Assembly (NCBI GenBank): GCA_030248195.1
Contig: JASAND010026020.1
Location: 19,519-83,518, forward strand
Origin: Trissonchulus latispiculum
Taxonomy: Eukaryota > Nematoda > Enoplea > Enoplida > Ironidae
Direction: 5' to 3'
Length of the DNA: 64,000 nucleotides
Shown here: positions 11,086-59,935 of the stretch, one piece after another
Position numbering within the stretch: position 1 is the stretch's first letter
Layout of the letters: every line of letters begins with the position of its first letter
Made by a program: the position numbers and the translations under genes
Notes under the pieces: generated by a model
Database searches by the model: none
Told to the model about the DNA's origin: nothing
What the model saw: only the letters and a program-made list of their open reading frames with translations

Positions 11086-12284
11086 CAAGAGTCCATAATT
11101 TATTCCTTTATATTATAGAAGAAGAGTCTGGGTTTACTTTAGGCGAAAAAAAGTGGGGGGGGGGGGAGAGGGGGGGGGGGGGGGTCCCCCCCCCCCCACT
11201 AGTGGGAGGGGGAGGTCGAAAAGTGGGGGGGGGAGATAAAATGGGCTAAAAATGCCAAAAATACCGTATAAAAGCCTGTTTTCTACATATGCTGCTATAA
11301 TTAAGCTTAAAAGTGCTCAAAAATGGAGTTTTAGCACCAAAAAAGACGATTTTTGACCAAAAATTTCCGGCGAAGCCGGAAAAATTTTGAAAATTTTGAC
11401 CAAAAATCCTAAAAATTTGACATTTTCTGGGCACCCTATAGTGAGTGGGAGGGGGAAGCCCAAAAAAGTGGGGGGGAACGAGTGGGGGGGAGGTGCTCGG
11501 AGTGGGGGGGGAACCCAAAAAGGGGGGGGGGGCCCCCCCCCGCCCCCCCCCAGTAAAATAAACCCAGAGAGTAAGCCACTAGAGGGATTCTCTTCTTGGC
11601 ATTGCGTAACGGTGCTCCGACCACAATACGCAAATGTTCCCCCGTTTGGTGGGGGGTCGACAAGTATACCCCCTCCCCATTTGGTGGGGGGGGGTAGGCA
11701 AAAGGGGTCCCCGTTTGGTGGGGGGGTATGCAAAAGGGGTCCCCGTTCGGTGGGGGGGGGGGGTTTCTGCAAGGGGTCCCCGTTTGGGGGGGGGGGTAGG
11801 GCAGAATGGGGTCCCCCGTTTGGGGGGGGGTCGCCAAGTCAGGCTAAGATTGGATGAATCTGATTGGCTGTTGGCGACCCCCCCCAAACGGGGACCCCTT
11901 GTGCATACCCCCCCCCCCAACGGGGACCCCTTGCATACCCCCCCCACCAAACGGGGACCTCTCTTTGCTACCCCCCACCAAACGGGGACCCTTTTGCGAA
12001 TAGAACAAAAACTACCGTAATCCTCTGCTCTACCCCCCCACCAAACGGGGAGGGGGTCTCTGCAATCTGATTGGCTGTTGGCTACCCCCCCACCAAACGG
12101 GGACCTCTTTTCTGCTACCCCCCCACCAAACGGAGGGGGGTATGCTTTGTCGATTTGGTCGACCCCCCACCAAACGGGGGAACATTCGCGTATTGTGGTC
12201 GGAGCACCGTTACGCAATGCCAAGAAGAGGAGCCCTCTAGTGGCTTACTCTTCTTCTTATATATAGTGCAATTATGCACTCTTG
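11086..12284. mobile_element. CAAGAGT-terminus foldback element, TSD GTAAAAG
   Basis: Begins CAAGAGTCC and ends GCACTCTTG, flanked by GTAAAAG at 11079-11085 and 12285-12291 (exact). Long inverted arms share AGTAAGCCACTAGAGGG, GCATTGCGTAACGGTGCTCC and tracts of CCCCGTTTGGTGGGG (left) against CCCCACCAAACGGGG (right), folding about a centre near 11860. A second element is nested in the left arm. No transposase is visible, and reading frames here are by-products of G and C runs. The nearest relative in the window is 46157-46833. Confidence 0.88.
11128..11567. mobile_element. Element nested in the left arm of the foldback element, TSD AGAGT
   Basis: Ends CTGGGTTTAC and TAAACCCAG are inverted, and AGAGT flanks both sides (11123-11127, 11568-11572). 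Removing it restores the reading GAAGAAGAGTAAGCC found in the other arm and at 46157-46833. The interior holds long G and C runs and an AT-rich core related to 18290-18560. Confidence 0.75.
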
Positions 12285-12490
12285 GTAAAAGGTTACGGTG
12301 TTGAGTTGAAGTCACTTTCAATGCGGAATAAGATTTGCCAGTTGAACTACAATAATATAAGCATGTTGTGCCATGGTTGCGTTTCGTGTCATTGTTTATT
12401 AAACAATGTTACCGTTTTGTTTGATTCGCTAAATATAACACAATAGTGTAAAGTAACTATTTGTACTATTCATTTTGTTTGTGTTTCTAG

Positions 12491-15400
12491 TGGATACCAT
12501 TGGTGCGGGAAGGTCATCTTAATACAGGGGACTTCAATTTGCCGGTTTTGTTGGACGCTTTACCCAAAAGTTACAGCTATGTTACTCCAGATGTAAGTTC
12601 TTCCGCTGTATCTTGGTCTTAAGGAGTATTTTGGAATAACTTTCGGGAGCTTTTTGCGACAACTTGATTTCTGGGGAAAACAAAGATTAACATTTGGATT
12701 TTCTGCAGGAAGAAAAGGATAGGATTTAGCAACACGAACTGGTCGAATTTTTGTGAAATTCTCTTTGTTATGTATGGGTGTGATATCACTCCTATGGGTA
12801 TAAAGGCTTCTCCGCGGCTCCCGGAGACCGTGTTGGCCTGGTGCCAGCTAATTAGAGATCCGGGAGGGGTAAAAATGTTACCTTCGTAAAGTACTCGAGT
12901 AGTACTGCAAGTATCACCATACTTTTGGTTCAAATTCAAAACTTCAATTTTTTACACTTGATAACGGTTAGTTTGCGTTTGCTTTTGTCTAGATGAGTAA
13001 CGCTTACGCTAATAGGAAGTGCATTTTCTAGGGAAATGTTGGAACGTTGTGGGCATTTTGGTCCAATACAATTGTTATGTAGATAGACAGTATCCTCATG
13101 TTACGTTTTCTTGGTCATTTTGGCAGTTTGGGGGCTCCGATAAGTGGAGGGGGAACCGGAAAGGGGACACATCCTCACTAAAAATGCCAGGCAAGAACGA
13201 CAAAAACTAATGAGAAATATGTTGCATGTCGTAAAAACTGTCGTAAACACACTTAAAACGTGAAAAACCAGTATTTAGGAAAAACACACTTTCCTAGAAA
13301 AACACGCTGAAATGCACAGGTCCGATTTTTGAAACAAGTCACTAAAAACGGCGTTTTCGGCCTTTTCGATGGTGCCCATAACCCATGTATCGTAAATTGG
13401 GGTCGCTGAATACGATGAGCATACTGCCGAAGTCGGTGGATGTGATCCCTGACCCCCATGGCCTGCGGGTCGGGGGTCCGGTGAGGGAGTAAAATGTTAC
13501 TTTATTCTAAGCAGTCTACTTTCAACGCGACTCTTGAACTGTTTACTTTATTTCAGATCAACTTGCCAAACTTAAAGTGGTTGGATGGTCATAAATCGGT
13601 TTTCAGTGTTAGCTTGTCTGCTGTTTCAACTGTGCACACTCAGGTAAATTTCGCAGAAAATGAAAAACGGAAATTTCCAAAGCTGTTTTGCACTATTTGG
13701 CATATGATTACATGGTTTAGTTTAACCATAATCTGTTTCATTCCGCTATTTAATGCACTAACGCACATTGTTGAAAAATTGTGTTTGTGCAAAAGACGGA
13801 ATACAGATTTCGTGAGAAAGTTGAGATAGCTTAGCCGTGGATGATGTTTTCGTTGGATATGGCAACGACTTCTTACTGATTCACTCAGAGTGCGTGGTGT
13901 AGACTGGGATTGAAATTCTTTTTAGGATAAATTTCTGGATAATTTCTTCAACATGTACTACAGTCTGTTGGCCGCAGTTTCTTCTGCCGGCTCAACCGGC
14001 AGCGATCGAGCGCTGCGAAATCTTGGCGATGAATCTCAGGTAGAACAGGATCTCAGACGCTGTATCACTGATCTGATGAAGGCCAGACCAGAGCCTTTGG
14101 TTCGATTTCTGCATTTGGTGTTGGATAAACTACTGATGCTAATGGTACATCCGCCAACCCTCTATGGACGAAGCAGTATGTGGCCCTTTTAACAGATTTT
14201 GAGGTTGCAACTTACGCTTATGTTTAGTAGCCGAATTCTAATTTCTATAATTTGCTGCAAAACATGGCATTGTAGCATAAACAGGGAAAATATCTTTTAA
14301 CTATAGTTTATGATCTTAGATTATGAATATCTTTAGCTTAGCTCAAGCTTATCACTTAGTTTTGTGTGCATCGAATCTTTTTTCTTGTACAGTCCATTTG
14401 TTTTTTATCAGTATATTATGATGTAAGTGATGAAGGCAGTACGTCGGTCGTTTAAATAAAAAAATTTTCTCGTTCAATGCTGTTAGTTTGCCAGAAATAG
14501 CAATATTGAGGGGTCAGCTATACAGCGGATGTGAGAATTGAATCTGGAAGAGGTCGCTCGCATGCACTACCAATATAGTTGATGTTTATTATACGTATTG
14601 CATTTTTATTATTGGCAACTATTTTGGCTTTAACATTCGTACGTATTGTATGAAAAAGTACGTACAGCTTCCAGCAAGTACTCATCTCAGTCCTGGGAAA
14701 TAAAGTTGGATGTGTATTAATACTTCTCTAGGTAGTTTAAAAATCCAATTAGACCTGCCTTGTTTATTTAATGTCTTGTGTTGGAAAAATTCGTGTCGAT
14801 GAGGCAGTGCATTTTGTTTCTATTTTAGAAGAGTACATAATGATAAGAGTATGCCATTAGGCAAGCTCTCTCTTATCAGAGCAAAGACTATGCTCTGCTC
14901 GCTAACGGCCCACCCCCCCCGCAAATCAGACCCTAGTGACCCCCCCCCGCAAATCAGTACCTAGTCGAAACGGGGGTACGCTCACTCGCTCTATGTTTAT
15001 GTGCTTAAGCTCGAAAACACAAGCAGTGCGTGCGAGATTTTGTGCCTGCTTCGAGCTTTAGAACATAAACATAGCGCACAAAATTCTTTGAAGTGATGGG
15101 TCTAATTTGCGGGGGGGGTGGGCCTTTAGCGAGCAGAGCATAGTTTTTGCTCTGATAACATAGAGTGTGCCTAGTGGCACACTCTTATTATTATGTACTC
15201 TTGATTTTAGTAAACTGTGGTCCCTGTTGTTTTGAGATGATTGGACAGGTTGTGAAAGTTTTGACCTGTCTGTTGGATGGATTTTGTGATCATCACGGAC
15301 GCAGCAGTCTCCTGACTTCCTATCTGCAGTATAGCTGTAGATTGCCTCATGCACCAGACGATCTATGTATGTAACTATTTTAATTAAGTTCAGAACAGAA

Positions 15401-24000: not shown

Positions 24001-27000
24001 CGGCCTCGGAGTGGTCCCCGTATATAGTAAATCGGGGTCGCTGAAAACGATGAGCATACTCCCGATACCGCCCGAAGTGACCACTGGTCAGCATGGCTCC
24101 CGTGGTTCCTCGCCCAGGGTCAAAGTTGGGAAAACTCACGCTATACAGCGTTTTTCGGCGTTTTGGTCGGGGGCATATATAGTAAATCGACTACGCTCAT
24201 TTCAATGGGCATATCGCCGAAACCGACCGAAGTGACCACTGGTCACTACAGCCTATGGGGCCTATTGACCACTGGTCAAACGGCCTAAAACTGCGTTTTT
24301 CGGCGTTTTTGTCGGGGGCATATATAGTAAATCGACTACGCTCGTTTCAATGAGCATATTTTCAGAACCGGCGGAAGTGACCACCGGTCACTACAGCCTA
24401 CGGGGCCTAGTGACCACTGGTCAAACGGCCTAAAACTCCGTTTTTCGGCGTTTTGGTCGGGGGCATATATAGTAAATCGACTACGCTCGTTGCAATGGGT
24501 ATATCGCCGAAACCGACGGAAGTGACCACTGGTCACTACAGCCTACGGGGCCTATGACCACTGGTCAAACGGCCTAAAACTGCGTTTTTCGGCGTTTTGG
24601 TCGGGGCCATTAGTAAATCGACTACGCTCGTTTCAATGGGCATATCGCCGAAACCGACGGAAGTGAACACTGGTCACTCAGCCTACGGGGCCTAGTGACC
24701 ACTGGTCAAACGGCCTAAAACTGCGTTTTTCGGCGTTTTGGTCGGGGCGTATATAATAAATCGACTACGCTCGTTTCAGTGGGTATATCGCCGAAACCGA
24801 CGGAACTGACCACTGGTCACTACAGCCTACGGGGCCTATTGACCACTGGTCATAAGGCTTAAAACTGCGTTTCTCGGCGTTTTGGTCGGGGGCATAGTAA
24901 ATCGACTACGCTCGTTTCAATGGGCATATCGCCGAGACCGACGGAAGTGACCAGTGGTCACTACGGCCTAAACAGCGTTTTTTGGCGTATTGGTCGGGGG
25001 CATATATAGTAAATCGACTACGTTCGTTTCAATGGGCATATCGCCGAAACCGACGGAAGTGACCACTGGTCACTACAGCCTGCGGGGCCTAGTGACCACT
25101 GGTCAAACGGCCTAAAACAGCGTTTTCGGCGTTTTGGTCGGGGGCAAATATAGTAAATCGACTACGCTCGTTTCAATGGGCATATCGCCGAAACCGACGG
25201 AAGTGACCACTGGTCACTACAGCCTATGAGGCCTATTGACCACTGGTCAAACGGCTTAAAACTGCGTTTCTCGGCGTTTTGGTCGGGGGCATAGTAAATC
25301 GACTACGCTCGTTTCAATGGGCATATCGCCGAAACCGACGGAAGTGACCACTGGTCAAACGGCCTAAACAGCGTTTTTTTGGCGTATTGGTCGGGGGCAT
25401 TTATAGTAAATCGACTACGCTCGTTTCAATCGGCATATTGCCGAAACCTACGGAAGTGACCACTGGTCAGCCCTATTGCCCACTGGTCAAACGGCCTAAA
25501 ACAGCGTTTTGGGATGAACCGGATTTAGAGTTACCGTTCGTTCTCTTCGAATGGCACTCGAAAATATGTCTTTAGTCAGCGCTTTAAATTTAAATGGCTG
25601 AAATTATTGTTAACTGGATCACTGCTGTCATCGCTTACTGAGCCTGATTTGCAGGTTGTGTATAGTTTGTATGCTTACACAAATGGCGTAATGCCATGAT
25701 GCATTAGACGCTTGGAGGAGAATCTTTAAAAGGACAGAAGGACAAGAAACAAAAATGCTCCCCTGGAGCATGAAAAAAAAGTAATATGGGTGATGGTGAG
25801 GTTGCAAAATCAAGAGAGGACTAGTCTTTAAAATGCTTAATATGGGGCTAGGTTCAAAAATAGAAGAGGACTAGGTTGTGAGCGAATTAATATGGGCACA
25901 GCTTCGCAGAACAACCCATATTCGCGGGATTTCACGCTTCGTTTTAGCTTTTGTCGCATACAGAGCTATCAATTTCAGTCAGTAAGTAATAAGAAATTTA
26001 AGAAGTTGAATACGTACTCATTGAATACAGTTGTTTGCATATACGTACTCTGTTAGACTAGCTAGGAATACGGATGTGCGTAAATTATCATCATTTGGTC
26101 GGGTTGAACTGCGGCAAGCAACGAGAAGAGATCTAAGGACATGAGGCTAAAGCTATTGGTTCAAGCAGGGAGGAAATAGAAGGTCAGAGTCCTAAGATTA
26201 TTCTTGAAATATAAATTTTACGTATAAATGAATAAAACGCACTGGTCAGTATAAAACGTTTCTCGAAGAAAAAGTTTGACTAACTATAAACTAAACGTAG
26301 CTTGGATGGATATGCATACTGATATACATTTATAAACCGCGAATATGGGTTGTTCGGCGAAGCTGTGCCCATATTAATTCGCTCACAACCTAGTCCTCTT
26401 CTATTTTTGAACCTAGCCCCATATTAAGTATTTTAAAGACTAGTCCTCTCTTGATTTTGCAACCTCACCATCACCCATATTACTTTTTTCATGCTCCAGG
26501 GGAGCATTTTTGTTTCTTGTACATAGAATAAATTGATAAAAATGAATTTCCTGTCCGCGAAGATTTTTTGTTCGACTAAACTCAAATTTCTCGGTAAACG
26601 TGGTGAGATGACACAACCTGTGCATAAATGGCAATCGGTCTAGTTTAGTCTTGTCTTCTTTTTACCAAGAGTAACTAAGAGTGTGACAAACATCACATCA
26701 CACTCCTATAGTTCTGCACTCTTGCTTTTAACCTACATTATATTTTTCAGGGCTGCGCAGATGTACGAAGCAGCGCATGCAGCTTATAAGCTGCTGTTGC
26801 CCATCTATGAACAGTATCGCGAGTGGCATCGCGTGTCAGCAGTTTATGCTAAACTGGCTGATGTTATGGCCAAGATTGATGACGTTTCTTCGGGTGTGGG
26901 ATTTTTGGGAGTTGTTGATGTGCCAGGTTTAGGAATGGGCGCGGGCGGTCCTTCTCGCCGTGTATTTGGAACCTACTTTCGAGTTGGATTCTATGGTTCT

Positions 27001-30000
27001 AAATTTGGCGATTTAGATGGACTGGAGTTTATCTATAAGGAACCGCCGATCACGAAACTGTCCGAGATATCTAGTCGTCTAGAAAGCTTCTATTCGGATC
27101 TCTTTGGATCGGGTAGGCAATATTGTCCGATTGTATTGTGTTTCCTAAAAAATATATAAGGTTTGTGCTTCTCTACGCGTAACTAAGGTTTAGTTATTAG
27201 ACCTAATTTGTTTGAAAACGCAAGTTTCTGAAAACTTTTTCATTCTAATCGTTCGTATAAAGCCTAATGAACGTCTCTCCTTTAGATGCTGAGGAAGCAA
27301 AATAGAATGTCCTGTTTCTAACTACTGCTTTTCCTTTATTCGAGTGTAAATCGGACTTTTTCATTTGTCGTTTCATTACGATTACTGTCTCTATTTATCC
27401 TCCATGAATCCGTCGCACTTCACTGAAATTCGTGTATGACTTTATCCATCCAATGCTTCCTCAAAATTCTTCTACCTGCCTGCCCATTTTCATAATGTTA
27501 AATTTTTGGATGTAAAAATTGAAATCGTAACGCAGGCCAAATCCGAGTTGTCGTGTAGCAAGACAGAACATTTTTGGTATTTTTTATTACAGATCATGTG
27601 GAAGTCATCAAAGATTCTAATACAGTGGATCGTGGCAGACTTCAGCCACAGAAAGCCTATCTGCAGATTACCTATGTTGAGCCATATTTTGACCGATGGG
27701 AGCTTCGTCATAGACCTAGTCATTTTGAGCAGAATTATAACATCAGACGATTTGTCTACGCAACTCCATTTACCCCAGGCGGCAGGCCTCATGGCGAGTT
27801 GCATGAACAGTATAAACGAAAAACGCTGCTGACGACAAGTCACAGTTTTCCCTATGTAAAGACAAGAATTCAGGTAATTTGTGATAAGTAAGGACATCTT
27901 TTAGGCCTATGCTGACCCAGTGAGTGTGTGACAACACATACTTGAGTAGGGATAGGAAGCATACAGGGGATAGGCACGGGGTCTAAGCTTGAGATTTAAT
28001 ATGGGTACAAACTATAGGGGGGGGGGGGGCTGACTTTGATGGGCGGGTCACCCGATAGCGCGCATCGGATGTAGCGAGCTCATAATACATAGCGTATGAC
28101 GCTTGTCATACTCTTATGTATTATGTACTCTTGGTAATAGTGAGCTTCAAGGTATGCTGGTGTCGGTATAAATTCAAACTTACAGGCTCCAATTTTTTAT
28201 GAAAGTAGATAAAAACTTTCCAGATATATTATTTTTGCTCATTATAGCATTCGGAGACCGGTCCCGCATTTTTAGGTTATAAGGTTTTTGCCATTCTATC
28301 AGTACGTAGTCCATGCTCCGAATTGGTTGTTATGGCTAGAAAGAGAGCACCGAAATGCACATTTTTGCTTTTACAACTTCTGGAGCTCGTTTAAGCTATA
28401 GATTTGGCCAAAAAATTATTTTGGCAAAACTGCGATTATTTTGTTTCGGACATCGATTTCTCAAAAACTACCCAATGCATTCGCGTGATTTTTGGGAGAA
28501 TGAAAATTGGCATTATTCTGGCTTTTTCCGACGGGGGGCGGAGGGTTTCCCAGAAATCGGTTCCCTCCAGACTTGGTTCGCCCCTCTAGAATCATTCCCT
28601 CCAGGATTAGGGCCTGCCGTCCGTCCAGACTTCAAAAGTCAACAGAAAAAATAGTGTTTGGAGTGTAAATTTTCAAAAGCTTTTCTGGCTTCTCCGGATT
28701 TTTTTAGGCCTTTTTAAGCTATATTAAGGGGGGTCCATTTTTGGCCGATTTTTCGACTATTTGCTCATTTTCACATACTTTGTTGTCCGATTGGTATATT
28801 TTGACGAGTTTTTGAAATTAAAGTCGGATCTCTTACGGTTAGCGAGTAATTTCACATCAAAGTTGATGTCAACATGTGTTAAACATAGGGAACTGAAAAA
28901 GTGGTGATTTTTCCGTGCGCCAGAGAAATCTCGCGAATGACAAAACGGAACAGTTCAACGTCCAGTTTATGTTATAAATGCGATCAAGAAGGGTGATTTG
29001 TAGGAAGCAGAATTTTAATTTAGGCCTTCAGGATTTTTAATTAATTTTTGAAGTTTGAGAACAGCCAAATTTTGAGAACTGTTTTGCAACATTGAAATTG
29101 AGGGTCAGCAAATTTGATGAAATATTCTGAAAGCTGTAAGGCCTAATTAAAAATTCTGCTTCCTACAAATCATAGCTTATGACAATACATTTCGAACGAT
29201 ACCAATTGATTCTGGTTAGCTCTGCCAAACATTGAGATTTCTCTGGTCCAGAATTCTGAATTTTTAGCAAAAGTTCGGAAATTCATGTTTTTGACAATAA
29301 CATAAGGCTATGGCAACACAGACCTCTAAGATGGTAGACTATCTGTTTGCGCACCATTATTGTTGACTTTAGGTCAAGTTTGTATACAAATGATGCAGGT
29401 TAGTACACCCAGTTGGTCGCTGGGGTCAAATATGAGGTTCTGACAACAATAATCTCAAAAATAGCGATTTTCAAATTTTTCGAAATGCGTTAAATTTTAT
29501 ATCAATCGAAAGCTCTCATTGTCTGGAACATTTTTCTTCTTGCACCATAGCCCGCAAATGCGCCGAATTCAAATTATCGGCCGTTAAATGATTGTCGTGG
29601 TCAGGGCTTTCCAGCGCCCCTAAAATCTCCTAATCTCCTAAAAAATTCCAGGTACTTCTCCCTAAAATCACTAAATAAAGCCATAAAATAGACTTTTCCC
29701 ATTAAAAGTCGCCCTAATTCCTTTACTTACATTAGTTACCAAACATATAACCGAGCGAAGCTGCATTTTCAAAGATGTTCAGGTGTAAAGTGTCTTTGTT
29801 TGCTACGACACCGTCGTTTTCACCCATTTTCAAATTGCGTGCAATTAATAGCCGGGTATATATATACTCGCTAAGTCCTGAACGAAACTACTCAAAATTG
29901 AAACTCGATATGCAGCACATGTGTGACAATATTTTGTGTGAAAATGCGCAAAATCCGTGACCATAAAATTTTTCATTGCGCACCCTCCCCCTTAAGCTTA

Positions 30001-37472: not shown

Positions 37473-37481
37473 ATTGTTTAG
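37473..37481 (+). promoter_or_regulatory. Possible 3' splice site abutting the PIGO start codon
   Basis: TTATTGTTTAG ends one base before ATG 37482. Such placement is typical of 5'UTR introns or spliced-leader acceptors. Confidence 0.45.
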
Positions 37482-43371: not shown

Positions 43372-46300
43372 GTATTTCCAACGTTGAAACCAATGTTGAA
43401 TTTGCAAGACAAAGAGTAAACTGTTTCTTCTTCTCTTCTTCTCTCTCTTCTATTTAGGGAATGCAATGTTACGAACGCCAAGAGCACATAATAGATAAGA
43501 GTAGGAAACTCTTACATTACTATGTACTAAGCATGCTAGGCATGCTCGGTGCGTTAACACGGGACCCCCTTCCCCAAATTTGTAGTAATGTAATTCTCAA
43601 CGATTTTTATATCATTGAAAAGGATTAATGTTACAAAGTTGTCGCATTAGTTTTTAGTTACGTTAACCTAATTAAAGTTATATTAATTAATAATAATAAC
43701 TATTAAATTAGCTACGGTAAATCTTAGGTTAATTAGCAAATCAGCGAGCAGACACGCGTTTATATGAAAGCGTGTAATTAGTACTAATGTCGGACTCCCC
43801 TCCCCTCCCCCGGAAGTTACAGGGGGATACCTAGTTAACGGACCGAGCATGCCTAGCATGCTTAGTTAATAGTAGTGTAAGAATTTCTTACCTTATCTAT
43901 TATTCACTCTTGCAAACGCTATAGTGTTATATTGACATTGAAAGTGAGTAACTTAATATTTGATTACCATGTACTGGTTGTGGTACTGTTACACGTTGTG
44001 AATTCGGTTACCCTAGTGTGAACTGTGAATTGGTAAGTTTGATGCTAATGCACAACCAGCCTGGTTGTGATGGCGGGTTCTGGTGTTCGGGAGAAGTGCT
44101 TTTTTACCCAGGGTGAACTGTTACTTTGTTTAACAGCAAACATGGACTGCGCGTTTTTATGAAAAAAATTAAAAATTTATTGGTTTAATCTAATTCAGAG
44201 CAAAATTAACAAAAATGTATACGTATCGTTCGGTTTATTTGATGCAATGTTGGAAGTTATATTGGGTGGGATATATTGTATTTTTTATGTTTTCTGTAGG
44301 TCGGTTTCATTTTTTGCACAATTGGGTCATTTTAGATGAAACACTATATTGAAGCTTACCAGGAAAGGAGCGGCGTTCTCAGCACTTCTTTGCAAACTGC
44401 TGTTCACAAATTGGATATGTTATCCTTACAGAAGGATCCTAATATGCAGGATTATCTGAACACCCTGAACGAGATTAGATTGGAGTTCCGAGTAGCATTA
44501 ATTTTTCATTTCTTAAATTCTGTGTAGCAATTTTCAATCATATATGTCGACAAATTCTGCGTTGTTCATCAGCATCTGAGTATTTTCCACTTATAGCAAA
44601 CTTCAAAATGAATGTTTTCGAAAGAAATTATATTTTTTCAGAAAATTTTGGTTCAGTTCAAGGAACCATTAATGATTCTCGGATTGGTGCTGCTTGTTGA
44701 ATCGATCCTGTTATGTAGTGCTCTTCTGCTGGCTTTTCAGTTGCGCGTTGACTGCTGGTTGTCAGCTGGTGTATTGATTACTATTGGCCTGATCAGTTTT
44801 TCTATTTCCGATAGCAATGTGATGATAGAATTATTCGTGGCACTTTGTGCTGTCTCAGTCTTTTATACCTGTTTTCGGTATGAAGTATTTTAGTGGTAAA
44901 TTTTAGCATTTTTCGTCATTTCAACATGGTCAACTTAAAATCTGGTTACTGTCCCCCGAGATTGTCTTCAGTTAAATGAATTACCCTCCGAAGTCCCCGT
45001 TGAAATTCTTGATGAGAATACATTCAGGCTGAAATGGGCTGTTGTCTTCGTTTGCTATGTATTTTCCGGAAACGCCCTGGTATTTTTTAGGGTTTTGAAA
45101 GTGGAGGGGTGCTTCGCCCCTCCTAGGGAAGGGAAAGTGGGGGGACTTCCGAAAAGTGGGGGACGAGCCCAAGGTATAAATATACCTAAATTTTTTAGCG
45201 AAAAATTAGCATTTTTAAGTTAAAAGCGCAAAACACTCGCTGTTTTTAAACTTAAAATGAACTTATAAGCCCATAAATTAGCTAAAACTTGCGTAAAGTT
45301 CGTAAAGTTTTGAAAATATTACCTCAAAAACTTAATTTTTTCACTTTTGGGCAACCCCCAAAAAAGTGGGTGGGGGCTTGCCGAAAAGTGGAGGGGGAAC
45401 CGAAAAGTGGGAATCCCCACCACCCCTCCCCCAACTAAAAAATGCCAGACCCCTGAAAAGATGTCTGAGGGCATTTGGAGAACTACCATTCCATCATAGC
45501 GTGAGTATAGTCTTCGCTTAAAGCGGTCTGTGAATCATCTGCCCAGTCTTTTGCTACCCAGGGTCAGTTTTTGTACCTCAAGTTGTGCCCTTTTCAATTT
45601 TAATATTTTTAGGCTGGTTCCATATTTGACTAAATGGTTTAAGAAGGTGCTTGTTGACCCAGTTTATGCCGTTTCTGTCTTTGTTGTTCTGGGTCATTTG
45701 ATTGGCTTCTTCTCGAACAGTTTTGTGGTCTACGAAGACGCCACCTTAACCTTTTTGTGTTCAAGTCTAATTGTGGTTGTGCTTTTGGGAGCTTTAAGAA
45801 ACAATAAAACTAAGGTTAGTACTCTCTGTGGCTATTGCCAATGGAGCTGTTCCAAAAAATTACACCTGGTTTTAGAAATGCTGGTTGCGTTGGAATAAAA
45901 ACGGTGGTTCAGCAAATCATCATACCTGTGCGGTTCACGTTAATTGCTGACGCATGCATTTTCAGATGAATATGAGATGCTCACAAATTGAAAAAGGGCA
46001 CTGTCAGCGCAAGCACTTTAAATCCAGGGGTTCGATAACTTATGATATTTCGATGTCGATATTTAAATTTTGTTACACAGATATGCGTTATTATGGCATT
46101 TTCGTATGATACAAATTTTAAAAAGTGTCAAACCCTCGTTTTAACATTAATACAATCAAGAGTCCATGATTTTCGCCTATATATTAGAAGAAGAGTAAGC
46201 CACTAGAGGGCTCCTCTTCTTGGCATTGCGTAACGGTGCTCCGACCACGATACGCGAATGTTCCCCCGTTGGGGGGGTCGACAAGCATACCCCCCCGCCC

Positions 46301-49300
46301 GCTTGGTGGGGGGGGCTAGTCGAAAGTGGTCCCCGTTTGGTGGGGGGGGGGGCTAGTCGAAAGTGGTCCCCGTTTGGGGGGGGGGGGTAGCCAAAAGTGG
46401 TCCCCGTTTGAGGGTGGGGTCGCTGAAAGGGGTCCCCGTTTGGGGGGGGGAGAGTCGCTCAAGCAGGCTCGGGTTTGCCCCTTCTGGTTGGCTGTGGGCG
46501 ACCCCCCCCCAACGGGGACCACTTTTGGCTACCCCCCCCACCGAACGGGGACCCATTTTCGAATAGCACAAAAACTACCGTAATCCTCTGCTCTACCCCC
46601 CCCCCCCCCACCAAACGGAGGGGGGGTTTCTGCAATCTGATGAACTCTAGTCTGCTACCCTCCCCCCCACCACCAAACGGAGGGGGGTATGCAATGTCGA
46701 TTTGGTCGACCCCCCCCCCCAAACGGGGGAACATTCGCGTATTGCGGGCGGAGCACCGTTACACAATGCAGTGAAGAGAAGCCCTCTAGTGGCTTACTCT
46801 TCTTCTTAATAATAGTGCAATTATGCACTCTTGATACAATGTTTGCAAACATAAGCACTGGTGGTTATTTTGCTATCCGGCATCGACAGCACAAACTAAT
46901 CAACCTCCAATAGCCGGATTTCAAATTTGTACTACACAAAAATGATGATGCACATGCCCGTTCGTTACGAAATTAAAACATAGCTAGCGGGGTAGCGGAT
47001 TATCTTTTGTAGAAACAAAACTTTCTTCGTTAACACAACGTGTTATAGACGACGAAATATTTTTTGTAATTAGAAAAATGCATGTCATTACTTATTTTGC
47101 AGTGTCGTTATTTCAGCGCAATTCGGCCCTTTTATATGGACTTGTTAGTTTGAGCTGTAATCGACTGGGTCTGCTTTGGACTCGATGTCGTGAAGAGCAG
47201 TCGGAGTGCCAAGTTTCCAGTCTAGTGATCTCTTTTGTTTCCCTGTCAGCCACTGACAGTGATCTTGTTAGGAAGACTAGATTTGTCCTGGCCACCTTGA
47301 CTCTGTTGGCACTGTTGATTTTAATTGGAGGTAGTTTTTGTTTGTTATGAGCTATTTGTTTTTGATGTTGCGTTGAACGCTGTCCGCACCGCACGGTATT
47401 TCAGAGCGACAAATTTAGGGTTTAGGTACCCAGTTAGTACTAGGCGTTTCGTCTCCACAAGAATGCTAACTAAAATCTCGTCCGTATTTGGAGTTTTTGT
47501 TTGTTCAATTGTGCATGTCTGTCCTTCCTGCAATCTGTTTGCCTATATTTTGATATTCCACGCAAATATAAATGTAAGTTTATGTTTGTCTGTTACTGTA
47601 ATCTTGTGCATTGGTTGCTTTTGGTTGGTATTTTTGCAGGTTTTCTTCAGTGGAACGGTCATTTGACCATATCTGGAGCTCATGTCCATTCCTCTCTGGC
47701 TTTGGTCCTTCTGGGATTTCGATGGGCTCTACCTTGCAGTACGGCCCTGCTCTGGTTCCATTGGCTGAGTCAGTGGTTCCCGGTCTCTTTGCAGGAGCGC
47801 TATCGGCATATTTTCCAGATCGCCCTTCCGGCCACTATTTATGGATTGCTGCTGCTTTGCCTGTTGGCTTGGCTTAGAAGACCACTTTTAACGTCCGTTT
47901 GTGATATCAAAACTAAATCTGACGGTATAAAAAGCTTTATAAAAGTTTCTAAGAAAATTTAATTCAGGGAAATTTTAACTGAATATTTTTCAGTTTTATT
48001 GGTAATGTCATTATATAATGTAATTTATATAATGTGCTTGACTGACCGTGTTCACTTGGTGAGCACTGTATGTATTCGCGGGTGGGTGCCATGAGTAATC
48101 CAAATCCAGTCCTGTTTTTAGGTAATCCACAGCAGCTAACACGTAGATTCATCTTCGGGTTAGCCAGTGGCTTAACTGGTAGCTGGGTTGCCTTACTGTC
48201 TTTTCTGTTACTGTTCTTATCCTTGATATTGGGCAGTGGCGTAACTGTGGCACTAGGCTTAGCTGCTGCTCAGTCGATTTGCTTTCTTGAGCTGCACAGT
48301 GCTGCTGTTGATGGTAAGCTCTTAGGTTTAATTAGAATCTACTCACAAAGGACGTTATACGCTTGGTACAAATGCTTGGATTTTTGCCAATTGTGCGTAG
48401 GTCAGTGATGGAACCGGGTCACCACGTAATCGAGTCAGTTCTGGTCACTTTCTCAAGACTCAAGAGCTTCGACCTGGTCCTGACTAGTGTTTTAGAACGG
48501 CCGGCCGGTTCAATCCGGCCGCCGGCTGCCGGCCAGACACTCAGCTGGGCCGGCCGCCTGGCTTATTTTTACTGGAGGGGAGGGCGGGGGTCGTCCGCCA
48601 TTTTGCGACCTGTCCCCCATGAATTCGGACCTTCCCCCATAACCACCGATAACCCAAAAAATGGCCATATTTTAACATTTTTATCCTGAATTTTTGAACA
48701 ATTTTTCGGCTTCGCCGATTTTTAATGCAATTTTCGCTATGTTAGCTTAAAAAACAACTAAAAGTAGTCATTTTTAGCAATTTTTGGCAATATTCGCACA
48801 AAAACTAAAAAAATTCGCCAAATTTTTTCAAAAATATGCTTTCCATTTTTGGTGACCCATGGGGGCAACTTGGCGCCCCCCCCAAAGCCTCCCTCTCCAT
48901 AAATTTTAGCCTAAAATAATCCAGGCCGCCGGCTACCCTGCCGTTCTAAGGCTCTAGTCCTCACGCGGTAATCCTGATTTACCACAAGTTTCGAAAGTTT
49001 TGTTTTTATCCCGCCTAAAGGCGGGATAGCTATTATCGAATCTAGGTCAAAATGAACCGCCTATTGACAACACTAAAACTGTGGCCTATGTTCAGCGTTG
49101 CAGCTCGTTAAGGATTACGTTTTTGTGTAGAGGGTGCACATTCGAAAATGTTTCATGAGCGAATTTTCCTGTGACATTGTGTAGTGCAGGATGGTGATCA
49201 AAGTCGTAATTGCGATGATTACTTTATCCTGTGAGTTTTAGAATACAGTCCCCCTGTTTGAACTTGAATTTTCAATTCGCTGTAGCTTTCCAGCAGTGCC

Positions 49301-52300
49301 CCCACGATTGGATTCAGAAACAGCACATTTTAGCTGCAGCTTGATTCGATATGCAAATTAGTTGGCTGAACTTTAGTCCTTAGTTACTTAAATATTAAAT
49401 GCTGTCTGGTGAGCTATTTCTCAGCTTTTGGTGCCATTGCACCACAATCAGTTGATAAAGATATTGTATTCTTGCATTGCGCCTCTGATGACCTCACCAC
49501 CCCGCAAGTAAAAAGTTTGGTTAGTCACAGATTGGCGAAACAACTGTTTCTACAGGCAAACAAAATACAGATTTTGCCAAAGCGGAATAATTTTGGCTGA
49601 AATATATTCTGAAATAGTTCATACATCATGCTTCCGACATCATACCGATAACAGCATGGTTAATTAATTGTCCACAAGATAAGGTATATTCCTCTGCGCA
49701 TTCCAACAATGAAGAAATAGAAAAAAGGGCAGCAAGCCATACATCACCCACCAACTCAAACCACTTCGCTGAAGTATTTAAAAGTCGAATTTAATCGATC
49801 GTCTATATGAATCTGAATATTGTTATCCAGGTTTGTTAGGTTCACGTTAAATTATATGTGTCCTCAACTTCGGGATAATGTCCCTTTTAGGGGCCCACTT
49901 GTTATAATTGTGAAATATTCAGAAAATTTGAAAAAGTGATAATACCAGCTCTTTCTTGCTTCTTTGTCAACCAAAAACTAATTATGCCATAATTTACGCT
50001 TTTCTTACTGGTCACAGAGCAAGCACGTCAACTACTTAGGGTTTTTAGAAAAATCGAAAATATTTGGTAGGATTTTGGAATTTTTTGGAAAACCGGGTCA
50101 TCGAGTCACCGGGTCAGAGCTCTACCGGGTCGCGGATAAGTGAACCGATTGCATCTCTGATGTAGGGCTAGTGATGCTAATTTTATTGGATCGAGTTTTG
50201 CAATTATGTAACAATGTTTTCCCAGCAAGCAGGTGATGCTTTTGAAATTTTTTGTTTTAGTTGATTGCAAATTTCAGTTTCCATCTATGTGCTTTTGGTC
50301 ACTGCAGATAACTAGGTGGTTCTATGCCACAGGTCATATGCCAACGTTCACTGCCATTCCGTGGGACGCTGCTTTCATTGGTTTGCCTCAGCACCTACAG
50401 TATCAATCTTTACAAGTATATACGTATTTACTGCAGTGTTCTTGTACATTGTCTTTGTTGTCACCTATATACATTGCAGACCTAACAGGAGCATAGGCGA
50501 ACAAGCAGAGAGACTTATACTTGGTTTAATCGTGCGCTAAAATTATTAACAGACCGTTTTTAAAAAAAACTGCAGATTTACATTAAGTTGCAGGAATATT
50601 TTTGCAATTGAACAAACACTACTTTTGTGAGACTAATACTACGTTTATACTTACTACAAAGTGCGAGAATTCAAATTTTGTATTCATCTTTTTTTGTAAT
50701 TCAGTGATATTGTTGATTTTAGGCATTTCTTGTTTTGTGCAATATTTTCTGTTCCACAATTCTGTACACTTCTGCACTGCCTCTTCTCAGTCTCTGGTCC
50801 TACTTCCCGGGGAAACTGGGGGTTTTCAGTTTGACAGCTGCTCGTTCGAAAAGACGACCCCACAATGAACTAGAATTTCAAGCAGTAGGAGAAGCCGTCT
50901 TGTTGTCTACTCAATCGTCTTATATCAGTCGTAGTCTTTTGATGTATTACATCGGATTGTTGCTTCTGGGGTCTTTTAAGGTAAATGTTAAGCATACCTA
51001 CGTATACTATCAAGAGTGTATAATAGTAAGAGTGTGACACTCTTACACTAGCATGAACAAATCATGCTAGGTATGCTCGGTGCGTTAACTCGGGACCCCC
51101 CCCCCCGGAACTTCCGGGGGAGGGTCCCACTTTGCACTATCTACACGCTTTCATATAAGCGTGTGTCTGCTCGCTGATTGGCCCATTAGCCCAAGGCTTA
51201 CAGTAGACATTTTATTAGTAATTTTTAATTAATTAATAATAACTTTAATTAGGTTAATGCAATTAAAAAACTAACTCGACAACTTTGTAGCATTTTTTCA
51301 GCTCTTTTCAATGATATAAAAATTGTTGCAGATTACATTCCTTCGAATTTTTGTATTATGCAACAATTTTTATATCATTGAAAAGAGCAGAAAAATGCTA
51401 CAAAGTTGTTGAGTTAGTTTTTTAATTGCATTAACCTAATTAAAGTTATTATTAATTAATTAAAAATTACTAATAAAATGTGTACTGTAAGCCTTGGGCT
51501 AATGGGCCAATCAGCGAGCAGACACACGCTTATGTGAAAGCGTGTAGATAGTGCAAAGTGGGACCCCCCCCCCCGAAGTTCGGGAGGGGGGGGGGGTCCC
51601 GAGTTAACACACCGAGCCTACCTAGCATGATTTGTTCATGCTAGTGTAAGAGTGTCACACTCTTATCTATTATATACTCTTGATACTATCAAGAGTTTAT
51701 AATACCAAAAGTGGGAAGCTTAGCCCTTCACAATGGATTACCTTATGTCAAAATTATGTGTATAAGTGGACCCGCCCGAGATCTCAAGGGGGGATCCCGC
51801 TTAGCGTTGTTTAAGCGTGTGTTTATATGCGGTCGCATTGAAATGCACTGATGAGGATTACGGTAGCTAAGTAGCCAATCAAATACATTTCAGTTCAATC
51901 GCATATAAACACACGCTTAACAATGCTATGTGGGACCCCCTCTGAGATCTCTTGGGGGGTCCACTTATACACATAATTTTGACATGAGGTAAGCGATTAG
52001 CCAATCAGATGCGTTTTAGTTCAAACGCATATAAACACATGCTGAACAATAGTAAGTGGGACCCCCCCCCCCCCGAGATGTACTCTTGGTACTATGTAGG
52101 TCAAGTTAGCTAGCCAGTTTAAGAACAGCTTTTTATAATTTTGTTGTCAGTGGATGGATAGTCCCCTTAATTTGTAATACATATGTGTAGCAAGTTTGCT
52201 TTCTATTTATAGTTGCAAGGTTAACAGACAAATAGTGTTTGAAATTTCATATCTTATGCTGGCTGACAAGTTTTGGGTACTTTTCGGTTTTCCAAGCATT

Positions 52301-54080: not shown

Positions 54081-54082
54081 CG

Positions 54083-54787: not shown

Positions 54788-54939
54788 CCTAAAATGTAAG
54801 CGCAACCTCGATTTTGCCTACTTTTCCCATCTTTGATGAGCGGCTACTTTAGCTAGAAAACAGCAATGGCAACTAAATGGGTCCCGGGGTATTTTTGTGT
54901 AGAACACATGTGCTAAGTGGCAGGCGTCTAGGTGGCATA

Positions 54940-56635
54940 GGGCCGTATTCACCAAGTCGTGGTAGCCCTACCAGTGGTAGCCTTACCAGTGATAGGGTTA
55001 CAGACGGTAAGAAAACCAATTGGTTAGCCGAGCGTATTCACAACCAATTGGTTAAATTACTGGTTGTTAACCAACCAGTGGTTTACTTACAGTAGTTAAA
55101 AGCAGAGCATTGTTTAACGCATATTGGCACGTGTTTCCCCTTCTTACTAACACAAGAAGTGTTTTTAAGACTGCAGTGTGAATCTTTTAATATAGTTTCT
55201 TTTATCCTAAAGTGTTTCATAAAGTTAAATCATTTCATATTCGCACGTGCACTTATATATTTAATTAGTGTGAATAAATCAAGTCTGATTAATTATATTT
55301 GATGTAATTTTAACTTTTCTTATTTGCTTAGTGGTCGTTTTCCCATTTATTCTTTCAAATATTTTGTTAATTGCTTTCTTATAAGCTAGTGACTCTGGCT
55401 GGGGACATATAATTTTGGCAAATATTTAATAGCATATATACTTGCAATGCGACAGCTACAGAAATCTAGCTGCAGTTAATTAAGATTCAGATTAAATTTG
55501 GTTTTGTATCAGTTCTCACACACATGGAAGTTTTTTAAAAGAATCTGTAAATTGGAGTTTTGGGATTATACTTCTAAAACGTAATCTTGTGTGACATCAT
55601 GTTTTTCTAACCTATTTTTCGCTTGATAAATGAAAAGCGTGATAAACACTGAAGGCATTTTTGACTTTTTCTGACGAAAAATAGCACAAAAATCAGCATC
55701 TATTTCTAAAAATATGCGCTGCAAACCACGTCCACGTCCACGGATGGTTTGCAAAATACCTCTCGGTAAGCTACCAGTGGTATGCTACCACTGGTTAGAA
55801 AATGTTGGTGAAATGGATCTCTGTAAGTAACCAATTGGTTTAACGGCTTATGTCGATCTGAGTAGGGGCAAACGTTTTCTTCTGTTTAAAGATTAACTTA
55901 ATGACTCTGTCCACTTGAAATCAGCAGGGGTCAATTTCTTTCCAGTTCTATCAATAGTACAGTTCAACTCTGATGCACTGGACAGAAATAAAAAGGGGGT
56001 GAATGTTAAAAACGTGTTTTGTATGAAGTAAAGTTAAAATTATTAAGAATGAAAGTAATTACCAAAAACTGCTGCTACAATAACTTGTTGCAGAGTTACA
56101 TTTTAGCTTTCTAGTTTATTAAAAACTATAAGTTTACATTAATATTACTATATTATTGTTTGTAATAATGTTACCGTAAAACATTAAAGTTGTATATAAA
56201 TCGTAAAATTCGAAAGTTATTTGAATTTAACTTAGTTCCCTTTAAAAACGGATTAATAATTATTCATATTTTTACAAACTAAATAACTGCTCGCTCAATC
56301 GATTGATATATAATTAGATTCCTAATAATTTCAAGAAATTTCAAACTGATAAGTGAAATCTATTTACTACTAGATGAAATACATAAGTACAAATACAATT
56401 TCATTTAGCTAACACTCACCCCCTCTTTATTTCTGTCTTGTGCATCAGAGTTAAACTGTACTATTGGTAGAACTGGAAAGAAATTGACCCCTGCTGATTT
56501 CAAGTGGACAGAGTCATTAAGTTAATCCTTTAAACAGAAGAAAGCGTTTGCCCCTACTCAGATAAGCCAGTTTAACCACTGGTAACCTATAAAAGCTACC
56601 AGTGGTAGGCTACCAGGGCTTGGTGAATACGGCCC
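54940..56635. mobile_element. PIF/Harbinger-like non-autonomous element, TSD ATA
   Basis: Ends GGGCCGTATTCACCAAG and CTTGGTGAATACGGCCC are exact inverses, flanked by ATA. GGGCCGTATTC-type ends with 3-bp duplications are typical of PIF/Harbinger. Subterminal words ACCAGTGGTA and CCAATTGGTT are repeated in both orientations. No transposase frame was recognised; a second foldback unit is nested at 55850-56575. Confidence 0.75.
55850..56575. mobile_element. Foldback unit nested in the Harbinger-like element
   Basis: About 160-bp inverted arms: GAGTAGGGGCAAACG, GTCCACTTGAAATCAGCAGG and CACTGGACAGAAATAAA-like sequence at the left return inverted between 56410 and 56560. AT-rich middle. Confidence 0.7.
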
Positions 56636-56639
56636 ATAA

Positions 56640-57774
56640 ATTCTCCACAGGAAAAAATTGGTCATGTTTCTGGAAAAACTATATTTTGTATGATAGCAGC
56701 CTATTGGATAGCAATTGGAAGGTGACCATGCTTCCAATAATTGGCCTCAGTGAGACATTCAAATCAACACCTTTAATTTAATTTTACGGCTTGCGTAGCT
56801 TAAGTAGTAATTCATTATTTGATTTCTGCAGAAATGACAACCTTTGGACGCCAAAATATATCTCACAATAGAAGCAAGCTGGAAAGTAGCTTCAAAAAGC
56901 AAAAATGTAGAGCACAACGAGATCTTTCGAATTAATATTGTTATAAACTGTGCACTTGTTGTCTAACTGTCAAAAATTGGCAAAAACCGCACTGAAGGGA
57001 AATGTCGAAGTTTTGAAACGGGATTGCGCGGGGGGTATTAGAAAGCTGAAATAAGTGCTTTAGGAAGGTTTCATCAAATATCTTGATTTGAGCCGTGAGC
57101 CAACAATACGAGCTCAGAAGGAATCACCATGTTAAAGTTGAGGTTGCTGAATTATTACGCCCTCGCAGCACGAGTGCTCGCCTATCATCAGCACTGATAG
57201 TGAGGGAAGTTGGCTCTCGCTTAGCTAATCCAGCCGAGTCTAGCTAAAACTTTTGTGGTACACTAGCACTCGCAACTAGCACTAGTACTGCGAGTACTAG
57301 TAGAGTAGCATTACTTTTATGGAACCATGGAAAGCGTTTCGGCGCAGCAGGAATTAGTAAAAAAGAAAGCAGCTTCGCCAACCGGATTAGTTTCTTCTAA
57401 TTTTAACTCACAAGTTATTTGCATTTGTCAACAGTCAACATGACTGCTGCTTTTGTTAACTAGTTCCTGTTCCGTAAATCATTAACTACTGCTTCGTTGA
57501 ATAGGAAATCCCACGGAACACTTCAAACTGTGCAGGAAGTTTCATTTTTATTAATAAAATTAGTTTTGCGTAGTCCATGATCACATAGGATGTGATTAAA
57601 CAGAACAGCATGAATTGTCTCATTGCATCTCATGCAGGTCTAAGCTATACCGTCCTGAGGCCTGTGCTGCATTATTCCGATCAATGGGTATCTTTTATAG
57701 TATAGTCAGTATAAAAATGTATAAATGTATAGTCAGTAACTAATCTTGTCAGTCAGACTAATCAGTAACTAATA
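56640..57774. other. Intergenic DNA, nothing recognised
   Basis: Only a short cluster of CTAGCACTAGTACTGCGAG-type words near 57265-57310 stands out. Confidence 0.45.
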
Positions 57775-59360
57775 ACTAAAGTCTGACCAAAAAATCTTGG
57801 AACCGAACAGTCAGCACCAGTCCTGAGTTATCCTTAGAAGGTAGCCTATATAAAGTATATATTTTTAGAATCCTCAGGAGGAGGAGATTCCGATAAACCC
57901 ATCATATCCGGTCTATATCCGGGTACCGGATACTAAATCGATAAAAACGCTTCAGATTCGGAAGAAAAGTGCTAATTAATTCATACTCTAGTATATTGGT
58001 CCTTGGCTCAAAACATTTCCGAAAATCGGGTCACATCCGGTCCATGTCCGGTAACCGGATGCCCAGGTCACAAAAACTGTACAGCAAGATGGGTAGGTCG
58101 TACAGTTTCGCCGATTGGATTTTTGGATTCCTCGGGTCGAAATTAGTCTGTATCCAAAATTTTGTCCGGTTTGGACCAAAATTGCGTGATCTATGGTCGT
58201 ATCCGGTTCGCAAAAAACCGGAAAAAACGGTTTTTCCGGCCTGGTGCTCGGAATCGCGGATTAAAAATGTTCCCTTTTGGCACAATGAATGTTTGGGAGG
58301 CTACTTTCATTTAACCGGTGTCAAAGCAATCAAATATCCGGTCCATTTCCGGTTCTGAGCTTTGAAGTTTGAGATTTCATGTGCTGTTATCTCAGTATCC
58401 GGTTGGTTCGGAAGTCAAATTATTGCATTAAAATTATATTTGGTATATCCCTAACCAACACCAACCTCAAATTACTTCATATCTGCTGTAAATTTTGAAT
58501 GGCAGCGTTTTAAAAATGGGTGATTTTTGTTTGTTTTGTCTAATTGTTAAACCGGACATGAGATTTGATCCCATACGCTTAGCTTTGTCGCATGCAATAT
58601 AACCTATTTTTGAACCATTTTTAAAACGCTGCCATTCAAAATTTACAGCAGATATGAAGTAATTTGAGGTTGGTGTTGGTTAGGGATAGACCAAATATAA
58701 TTTTAATGCAATAATTTGACTTCCGGACCAACCGGATACTGAGATAACAGCCCATGAAATCTCAAACTTCAAAGCTCAGAACCGGAAATGGACCGGATAT
58801 TCGATTGCTTTGACATCGGTAAAATGAAAGTAGCCTCCCAAACATTCATTGTGCCAAAAAGGAACATTTTTAATCCGCGATTCCGAGCACCAGGCCGGAA
58901 AAACCGTTTTTTCCGGTTTTTTTGCGAACCGGATACGACCATAGATCACGCAATTTTGGTCTTAACCGGACAAAATTTTGGATACAGACTAATTTCGACC
59001 CGAGGAATCCAAAAATCCAATCGGCGAAACTGTACGACCTACCCATCTTGCTGTACAGTTTTTGTGACCTGGGCATCCGGTTACCGGACATGGACCGGAT
59101 GTGACCCGATTTTCGGAAATGTTTTGAGCCAAGGACCAATATACTAGAGTATGAATTAATTAGCCTTTTCCTTCCGAATCTGAAGCGTTTTTATCGATTT
59201 AGTATCCGGTAACCGGGTATAGACCGGATATGATGGGATTATCGGAATCTCCTTCTCCTGAGGATTCTAAAAATATATACTTTATATAGGCTACCTTCTA
59301 AGGATAACTCAGGACTGGTGCTGACTGTTCGGTTCCAAGATTTTTTGGTCAGACTTTAGT
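57775..59360. mobile_element. Large foldback element, ~745-bp arms with ~97-bp loop
   Basis: 57775-58518 and 58616-59360 are inverted copies from ACTAAAGTCTGACC inward to GCTGCCATTCAAAATTTAC. Both arms are rich in ATCCGGTC and GGTACCGGATAC words. Mirrored open frames of 60-130 codons occur in the arms but resemble no protein. No clear target duplication. Confidence 0.85.
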
Positions 59361-59410
59361 TTGCCTAGTCTTGCTGTCCTTAGAAAGAGCTACTTATGTA
59401 TTAGAAGAAC

Positions 59411-59935
59411 CAAGAGTTTATAATAGGAAGAGTTAGGCCCTATTTCTTTAAAGATTAAACGGATTAGCTTAAAATTAATCCGCATTAAAGAAACAGCACC
59501 TCGAATTAAACGGATTAAAATTTAATCCAGCGAGTTAAGCGAGTTAAACGGATTACATTTAATCATGCTCCTTTAATGCACCTAGGATTAAAATTTTAAT
59601 GTAATCCGGTTCCTTTATTCAAACTTCGGATTAAAAAATCAGCGAGTAATTTTAATCCGACCTGCTTAATCGCTGTTCTTGTAAAGATTAAATTTAATCC
59701 GTTTAATCCGTCTCGTACATTTCCAACTAGTTCTTAATCCTCGTGCATTAAATCCGCGTCCTACGCGAATTATTAAAGTTAACTCGTTTAATCCGAGGAT
59801 TAAAATGGTCGGATTAAACGAGTTAATTTTAATCCGTTTAATCCATTGAATAGCCGTTAACATTTTAATCCGTTTAATCTGAACATTTTAATCTTTAAAG
59901 AAGTAGGCTCTTAGTCTTCCCATTATAAACTCTTG
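59411..59935. mobile_element. CAAGAGT-terminus element filled with TAATCC/GGATTA words, TSD GAAGAAC/AAAGAAC
   Basis: Starts CAAGAGTTTATAATAGGAAG and ends ATTATAAACTCTTG; flanking 7-mers differ at one base. The interior 59461-59872 is built of TTTAATCCG and CGGATTAAA words in both orientations, separated by AGCGAGTTAA-like spacers. Confidence 0.82.

What the first reader, a model, noticed from the sequence alone, without database searches (positions are those of the whole stretch)
11086..59935. A family of insertions with CAAGAGT...ACTCTTG ends, 7-bp target duplications and unrelated palindromic interiors
Seen: insertions at 11086-12284, 14829-15203, 43479-43922, 46157-46833, 51011-51682, 51690-52087 and 59411-59935, plus reduced copies at 26666-26724 and near 28133. 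The ends share CAAGAGT, then about 10-30 bp further in a second AAGAGT. Flanking 7-mers are exact for GTAAAAG, ATTTTAG, ATACAAT and ATACTAT, and match 6 of 7 in the others. Interiors share almost nothing except self-complementarity. Known: 7-bp duplications are unusual among DNA transposon superfamilies (Dada gives 6-7, P about 8, hAT 8). Inference: one transposase recognises very short ends and mobilises whatever palindromic cargo lies between.
Basis: partly seen in the sequence, partly recalled or inferred. Interest (0 to 1): 0.9.

Follow-up and report, generated by a model that had tools for sequence, protein, structure and literature searches.

The report
Self-targeting palindromic MITEs in a nematode
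A nematode genome carries thousands of small palindromic jumping-DNA insertions that share one end signal and one insertion-site rule, and their own ends contain that preferred site, so copies also land inside and beside each other.

Summary
Of eight paired insertions in the window, 4 have exact 7-bp duplications, 3 match 6 of 7, and one 59-bp copy is ambiguous. The copy near 28133 is a single, truncated end; the third insertion ends at 43912, not 43922. The genome (734 Mb, a nematode by its genes) holds 6,690 exact matches to the extended end CAAGAGTNNATAATNNNAAGAGT, control 0. In 31 end pairs taken without regard to flanks, 19 have exact 7-bp duplications and 8 match 6 of 7, against 0.65% and 3.6% for mixed-up pairs; lengths 5, 6, 8, 9 and 10 gave none. 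Subfamilies share one palindromic 13-bp target, TNN-RTANTAY-NNA. Most copies are foldback MITEs in several related subfamilies, so interiors are not all unrelated. Best explanation: one cut-and-paste transposase, most like the P superfamily (Galileo: 7-bp duplications, GTANTAC). No transposase was found; two family searches were silent, and so were their controls. The unexpected point: the CAA/TTG tips regenerate the target's flanks, and one type of end holds a full target; nested and tandem self-insertions sit there.

The parts
11086..12284 (.). MITE, related to 46157; 1199 bp with G-rich interior; TSD GTAAAAG exact; its arms align only in part
14829..15203 (.). Foldback MITE, 359-388-bp subfamily (8 related copies in the fetched sample, about 87-94% identical in the same orientation); TSD ATTTTAG exact if the first C of the left end is taken as lost
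26666..26724 (.). 59-bp minimal element, two ends back to back; flanks TTTTTAC/CTTTTAA (5 of 7; 7 of 8 as an 8-mer); lies just upstream of a DHR-2 (DOCK) coding stretch
28078..28133 (.). single right end with hairpin; taken as a truncated copy, no matching left end found (sequence runs on as in L032)
43479..43912 (.). Foldback MITE, related to 51011; TSD CGAACGC/CAAACGC, 6 of 7
46157..46833 (.). Foldback MITE; TSD ATACAAT exact
51011..51682 (.). Foldback MITE, arms 327/331 bp with 314 of 332 columns identical; 93% identical to L031 over 673 columns; TSD ATACTAT exact
51683..51689 (+). 7-mer ATACTAT between two abutting elements: read as tandem insertion into a target duplication
51690..52088 (.). 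MITE of another subfamily in tandem with the previous one; TSD ATACTAT/GTACTAT, 6 of 7
59411..59935 (.). Foldback MITE, no close relative in the sample; TSD GAAGAAC/AAAGAAC, 6 of 7

Best explanation
These are non-autonomous, mostly foldback (palindromic) MITEs of one cut-and-paste DNA transposon system in a nematode. Shown: a shared end (commonest form CAAGAGTNNATAATNNNAAGAGT), a 7-bp target duplication, and a 13-bp palindromic target motif TNN-RTANTAY-NNA common to the sampled subfamilies. Inferred: a single transposase, most likely of the P superfamily (Galileo-like), binds the repeated AAGAGT/ATAAT motifs of both ends, excises the element and joins it at 7-bp-staggered cuts in that motif. 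The element tips (CAA at the left, TTG at the right) supply the A at +3 and the T at -3, so each insertion leaves its duplicated 7-mers as targets with both flanking letters. Ends of the form CAAGAGTNNATAATACCAAGAGT also contain the complete target T-NN-ATAATAC-CA-A. Self-insertion would then follow from the motif alone and build tandem and nested copies.
For: 6,690 exact end matches in the genome, control 0. 31 distinct innermost end pairs taken without regard to flanks: 19 exact 7-bp, 8 at 6 of 7, 4 lower (1, 2, 4 and 4 of 7); no exact duplication at lengths 5, 6, 8, 9 or 10, one at 4; mixed-up pairs 0.65% exact and 3.6% at 6 of 7, n = 930. Target logo of the 27 pairs at 6 of 7 or better: T at -3 in 24, T2 in 24, A6 in 26, A at +3 in 23. 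98 distinct CAAGAGTNNATAAT ends, single ends included: T2 and A6 in 77 of 98 against 8.8% background; with T at -3, 61 of 98 against 2.7%. Among exact 7-mer ends, right-end to left-end spacings up to 40 bp are 7 (5 cases) or 23 = 16 + 7 (1 case, the same place as one of the five); two of the five are the inner sides of the nested cases below. L062 and L065: an inner element of another subfamily lies exactly at the outer element's own ATAATAC and duplicates it, while the outer copies have their own exact TSDs GTCCAGA and GTTAAAT; with the inner copy and one 7-mer left out the outer arms pair (284 of 318, 293 of 324 columns) and align to the uninterrupted copy L066 (509 and 508 of 652 columns identical). 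P-superfamily comparison: Galileo makes 7-bp duplications of GTANTAC inside a palindromic target motif and has long foldback-like TIRs (PMC4168063, PMC2775673).
Against: No transposase gene was found. P-element RNase H (PF21787) and THAP (PF05485) gave 0 matches in the genome, but both controls were also silent, so this neither supports nor excludes the P assignment. Galileo's outer target letters (AANGT...ACNTT) differ from T at -3 and A at +3 here. Four of 31 pairs lack matching flanks, and many ends in the fetched stretches have no partner that I could find. The nested and tandem cases are few and come from loci chosen by end matches, so their rate is not estimated, and no genome-wide count was obtained.
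Confidence: 0.62

Rival explanations
1. Same MITE system, but driven by a transposase of another superfamily with long duplications (hAT, Dada-like, Merlin, KDZ or an undescribed group), not P.
For: hAT targets are also described as palindromes with T at the second and A at the next-to-last position (recalled). Dada makes 6-7 bp duplications, shows tandem insertions separated by the duplication, and has subterminal repeats also present in its target (PMC3706591 passages). The P and THAP searches found nothing.
Against: hAT duplications are 8 bp (recalled); here no exact 8-bp duplication in 31 pairs. Dada lacks TIRs in the families described in the passages and targets small RNA genes; these have long TIRs and the window has no Rfam match. 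The consensus RTANTAY is that of Galileo.
Confidence: 0.3
2. Several unrelated transposon families have converged on similar 7-mer ends and 7-bp duplications.
For: Interiors of the subfamilies are largely unrelated, and the bare 7-mer alone is common by chance.
Against: The extended end has zero control matches, and target preference is seen over the pooled ends.
Confidence: 0.03
3. The palindromes and nested or tandem arrays are assembly or amplification artefacts, or arose by recombination rather than insertion.
For: Some larger palindromes look suspicious: L058 sits inside a longer palindrome, contig C65 is palindromic around a G-run, and 57774-59361 shows no duplication.
Against: 7-bp duplications at one motif in 27 of 31 pairs at 6 of 7 or better, and nested copies of a different subfamily with the outer arms still pairing, are not expected that way.
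Confidence: 0.05

Closest known systems
Galileo (P superfamily), Drosophila
   Same: 7-bp duplications, consensus GTANTAC/GTATTAC, palindromic target motif extending beyond the duplication, long foldback-like TIRs, many non-autonomous copies, subfamilies sharing about 40 terminal bp (passages and two sections)
   Different: Different terminal sequence (recalled) and different outer target letters; a transposase is known there and was not found here; nematode host; no mention of a target inside the ends in the passages I read
P-MITEs of Anopheles gambiae
   Same: MITE families sharing ends with P masters, with unrelated interiors (PMC1562414 passages)
   Different: 8-bp duplications, copy numbers 5-310 per family, TIRs of the P masters 27-31 bp; here 7 bp, long foldback arms and thousands of ends
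Tm1, Mutator/Foldback elements of root-knot nematodes
   Same: Nematode foldback elements with internally repeated TIRs (PMC3169594 passages)
   Different: 8-10 bp (mostly 9-bp) duplications without consensus, different terminal motifs
Dada superfamily
   Same: 6-7 bp duplications; tandem copies separated by the duplication; short end repeats that also occur in the target (PMC3706591 passages)
   Different: No TIRs; inserts in small RNA genes
CERP2/CELE2 MITEs of Caenorhabditis
   Same: High-copy nematode MITEs whose inverted repeats contain a motif pair (PMC9757741 passages)
   Different: Co-opted as germline promoters regulated by HIM-17; I did not compare their motifs or duplications with these

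Membership tests
MITE (non-autonomous TIR transposon) | Short, TIR-bounded, target duplication, high copy, no transposase | tested here: met
   No transposase seen: 5 open frames from the interiors of L059, L042 and 11086-12284 had no Pfam match at E 0.01; the other interiors were not scanned
P superfamily (Galileo-like) | 7-8 bp target duplication | tested here: met
   19 of 31 pairs exact 7 bp, 8 more at 6 of 7
P superfamily (Galileo-like) | Palindromic target motif with core GTANTAC | tested here: met
   RTANTAY core; outer letters differ from Galileo's
P superfamily (Galileo-like) | THAP plus P-type RNase H transposase encoded by an element with these ends | tested here: inconclusive
   PF21787 and PF05485 0 matches, controls also 0; PF21788 did not complete
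hAT | 8-bp target duplication (recalled) | tested here: not met
   0 of 31 pairs with exact 8-bp duplication; the 59-bp window copy, not among the 31, could be read as 7 of 8
hAT | hAT transposase (PF05699) in elements with these ends | not tested
   search did not complete
Mutator/Foldback (Tm1) | 8-10 bp target duplication | tested here: not met
   (8, 9, 10 bp: 0 of 31)
Mutator/Foldback (Tm1) | MULE transposase (PF10551) | not tested
   search did not complete
Dada | Insertion in small RNA genes | tested here: not met
   No Rfam match at gathering cut-offs and no tRNA in the window with 8 insertions; not tested for the other loci
Dada | No terminal inverted repeats | tested here: not met
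   TIRs of over 300 bp in several copies

The most novel reading that the evidence does not exclude
The transposon's ends have evolved into self-propagating landing pads. Terminal CAA/TTG letters rebuild the 13-bp target at every insertion, and a complete target (T-NN-ATAATAC-CA-A) lies 9 bp inside one common type of end, so each copy offers new sites. Successive self-insertion there would itself generate the 16-bp-spaced CAAGAGT repeats that make up the presumed transposase-binding end, so end architecture and target choice would co-evolve.
Probability: 0.25. Interest if true: 0.75.

Novelty: new member of a known kind. Interest (0 to 1): 0.5.

Why it matters
If P-like, this would be a very large 7-bp-duplication foldback MITE radiation in a nematode. 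One search counts 6,690 exact ends; scaling by the 3 exact ends seen for 8 window elements suggests very roughly 18,000 copies, an estimate resting on only 3 ends. It would also be an unusually clear natural system in which the target motif is written into the transposon's own ends, making it testable how MITEs nest, array and diversify, and whether binding sites in ends and target choice share an origin.

Tried and rejected
Viral-contig scan for the end gave one match; 1.7 kb of that contig, read by eye, showed nothing like these elements, and I took it as chance. Homology search with the window's GPCR scored nothing at E <= 0.001, so the species is not identified. Stop-to-stop frames of at least 140 aa in the 20 stretches were listed; 4 of them were scanned with Pfam and gave nothing; a gypsy-like ORF in L047 was noted by eye. 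Five frames from element interiors also gave no Pfam match; one of them, in L059, looked to me like the end of a reverse transcriptase, which this did not support. Searching up to about 9.9 kb downstream of ends gave a few longer candidate pairs, e.g. 4,573 bp in L039 with 6 of 7 and poor ends, and one of 5,145 bp in L048 and one of 5,526 bp in the window, which I took as chance or mispaired ends and did not read for genes; no coding element was found. Joined flanks of six window insertions found no empty site within the sequence held. Eight paper searches showed no description of this family in their listings; one search looked for the letters CAAGAGT with 'inverted repeat' and 'transposon' and its 13 papers were seen as a listing only. 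Papers were seen as passages (PMC3169594, PMC4168063, PMC9757741, PMC3688188, PMC1562414, PMC2775673, PMC3573991, PMC3706591), and sections 8 and 12 of PMC4168063 in full.
Full report
Setting. The window is nematode nuclear DNA by its genes: it encodes a serpentine chemoreceptor of the Srx type, an MFS transporter and a DHR-2 (DOCK) coding stretch. It is part of an unnamed assembly of 734 Mb in 21,732 contigs. No tRNA and no Rfam family was found in it.

Observation. Eight paired insertions make up 4,340 bp, 6.8% of the window. Four have exact 7-bp duplications (one of them if a lost first base is allowed), three match 6 of 7, and one 59-bp copy is ambiguous (5 of 7, or 7 of 8 as an 8-mer). 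Random position pairs in the window give 0.0245% exact. The third insertion ends at 43912, and the item at 28133 is taken as a truncated end.

The extended end CAAGAGTNNATAATNNNAAGAGT has 3,372 forward and 3,318 reverse exact matches, and the reversed control has 0. In the DNA I could fetch I took innermost end pairs (exact CAAGAGT, at most one mismatch in ATAAT) without looking at flanks. Of 31 distinct pairs, 4 of them from the window, 19 are exact at 7 bp, 8 match 6 of 7 and 4 match 1, 2, 4 and 4 of 7. Lengths 5, 6, 8, 9 and 10 gave no exact duplication and length 4 gave one. Mixed-up pairs gave 0.65% exact and 3.6% at 6 of 7, n = 930. The fetched loci are among the places listed first by contig number; 15 stretches were chosen because both ends were in the list. 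The sample is therefore not random over the genome, but it was not chosen by flanks.

Target. The 27 pairs with 6 of 7 or better share a symmetric motif: T at -3 in 24, T at position 2 in 24, A at position 6 in 26, A at +3 in 23. Over 98 distinct CAAGAGTNNATAAT ends, including those without a partner, 77 have T2 and A6 (background 8.8%) and 61 also have T at -3 (background 2.7%). So the target is a 13-bp palindrome, TNN-RTANTAY-NNA, pooled over subfamilies with different interiors. This is the main evidence for one transposase.

Anatomy. Of 33 sequences compared (9 from the window, the truncated 28133 item included, and 24 from fetched loci), 26 have arms that start within 3 bp of both tips and align over at least 75% of the half-length, at 64 to 95% identity; the other 7 are 11086, 51690, 26666, L060, L009, L042 and L059. 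For example L031 has arms of 325 bp in a 664-bp copy with 307 of 326 columns identical. By alignment over at least 80% of the shorter copy they fall into six groups and six singletons: nine copies of 359-388 bp with 14829-15203; six with 51690; five of 408-415 bp; three with 51011 and 43479; 11086 with 46157; L053 with L063; and 59411, 26666, 28133, L066, L042 and L059 alone. Two longer copies, L042 (1,767 bp) and L059 (1,982 bp), carry other interior sequence. Five open frames from L042, L059 and 11086-12284 had no Pfam match. No transposase was seen.

Self-targeting. The element starts CAA and ends TTG, so any duplicated 7-mer beside an element has the A at +3 or the T at -3 that the target asks for. 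Among exact 7-mer ends within 40 bp, right ends are followed by left ends at spacing 7 (5 cases) or 23 = 16 + 7 (1 case, at the same place as one of the five). Three of the five are plain tandem pairs (window, L027, L055) and two are the inner sides of the nested cases below; L043 is a further likely tandem, with ATATATC at three junctions. In the window the three 7-mers around 51011-51682 and 51690-52088 read ATACTAT, ATACTAT, GTACTAT. Ends of the type CAAGAGTNNATAATACCAAGAGT contain T-NN-ATAATAC-CA-A, a complete target. In L062 and L065 an element of a different subfamily lies exactly there, with ATAATAC on both sides, inside an outer element with its own exact duplication (GTCCAGA, GTTAAAT). 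Leaving out the inner copy and one 7-mer gives outer arms that pair (284 of 318 and 293 of 324 columns) and a sequence that aligns to the uninterrupted copy L066 at 509 and 508 of 652 columns. L061 and L020 show a similar junction on one side. The motif occurs 0.28 times per kb in the sequence held, so elements may supply a good part of all targets, and self-insertion then needs nothing beyond the motif (inference). How common it is genome-wide was not measured, because the search did not complete.

Which transposase. Galileo of Drosophila, a P-superfamily foldback element, makes 7-bp duplications with consensus GTANTAC within a palindromic target motif (PMC4168063; PMC2775673). P-MITEs of Anopheles make 8-bp ones, Tm1 Mutator/Foldback elements of root-knot nematodes 8-10 bp, and Dada 6-7 bp without TIRs in RNA genes. 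The nearest match by anatomy among those I compared is therefore P/Galileo. Membership is not shown: PF21787 and PF05485 gave nothing in the genome, but the control genomes were silent too. I therefore say that it works like a P-superfamily foldback MITE and do not file it as one.

Verdict. A real, very abundant MITE group, unnamed as far as the listings of my eight paper searches show. It is ordinary in mechanism, but notable for a target built into its ends.

Noticed in passing
window 57774-59361: A 1,588-bp near-perfect palindrome (arms 462 nt at 97% and 308 nt at 98%) with different ends and no visible target duplication; another foldback family or an artefact.
   Followed up: partly
L058 and L038/L039 (contig C65): Larger palindromes: L058's flanks are reverse complements of each other beyond the element; C65 carries the same sequence inverted in two places, with a G-run of about 1.1 kb between them. 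Possibly assembly or amplification artefacts.
   Followed up: no
L050 8436-9998: A 521-aa open frame with internal repeats and no Pfam match, about 5 kb from a single end with flank GTTTTAC.
   Followed up: partly
window 519-971 and 9804-10319 (also 7431-7895); L046 2071-2679: A repeat whose translated frames share peptides like 'FEISVVELPYDQLLSEIGDKK' in several places; not identified.
   Followed up: no
L019/L020 around 1507-1539: Three ends in 16-bp register, probably an element inserted at another's internal target.
   Followed up: partly
L032-L051: Many ends have no partner with a matching 7-mer within reach although their own flank fits the target motif: truncated copies, degenerate partners or longer elements.
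   Followed up: partly
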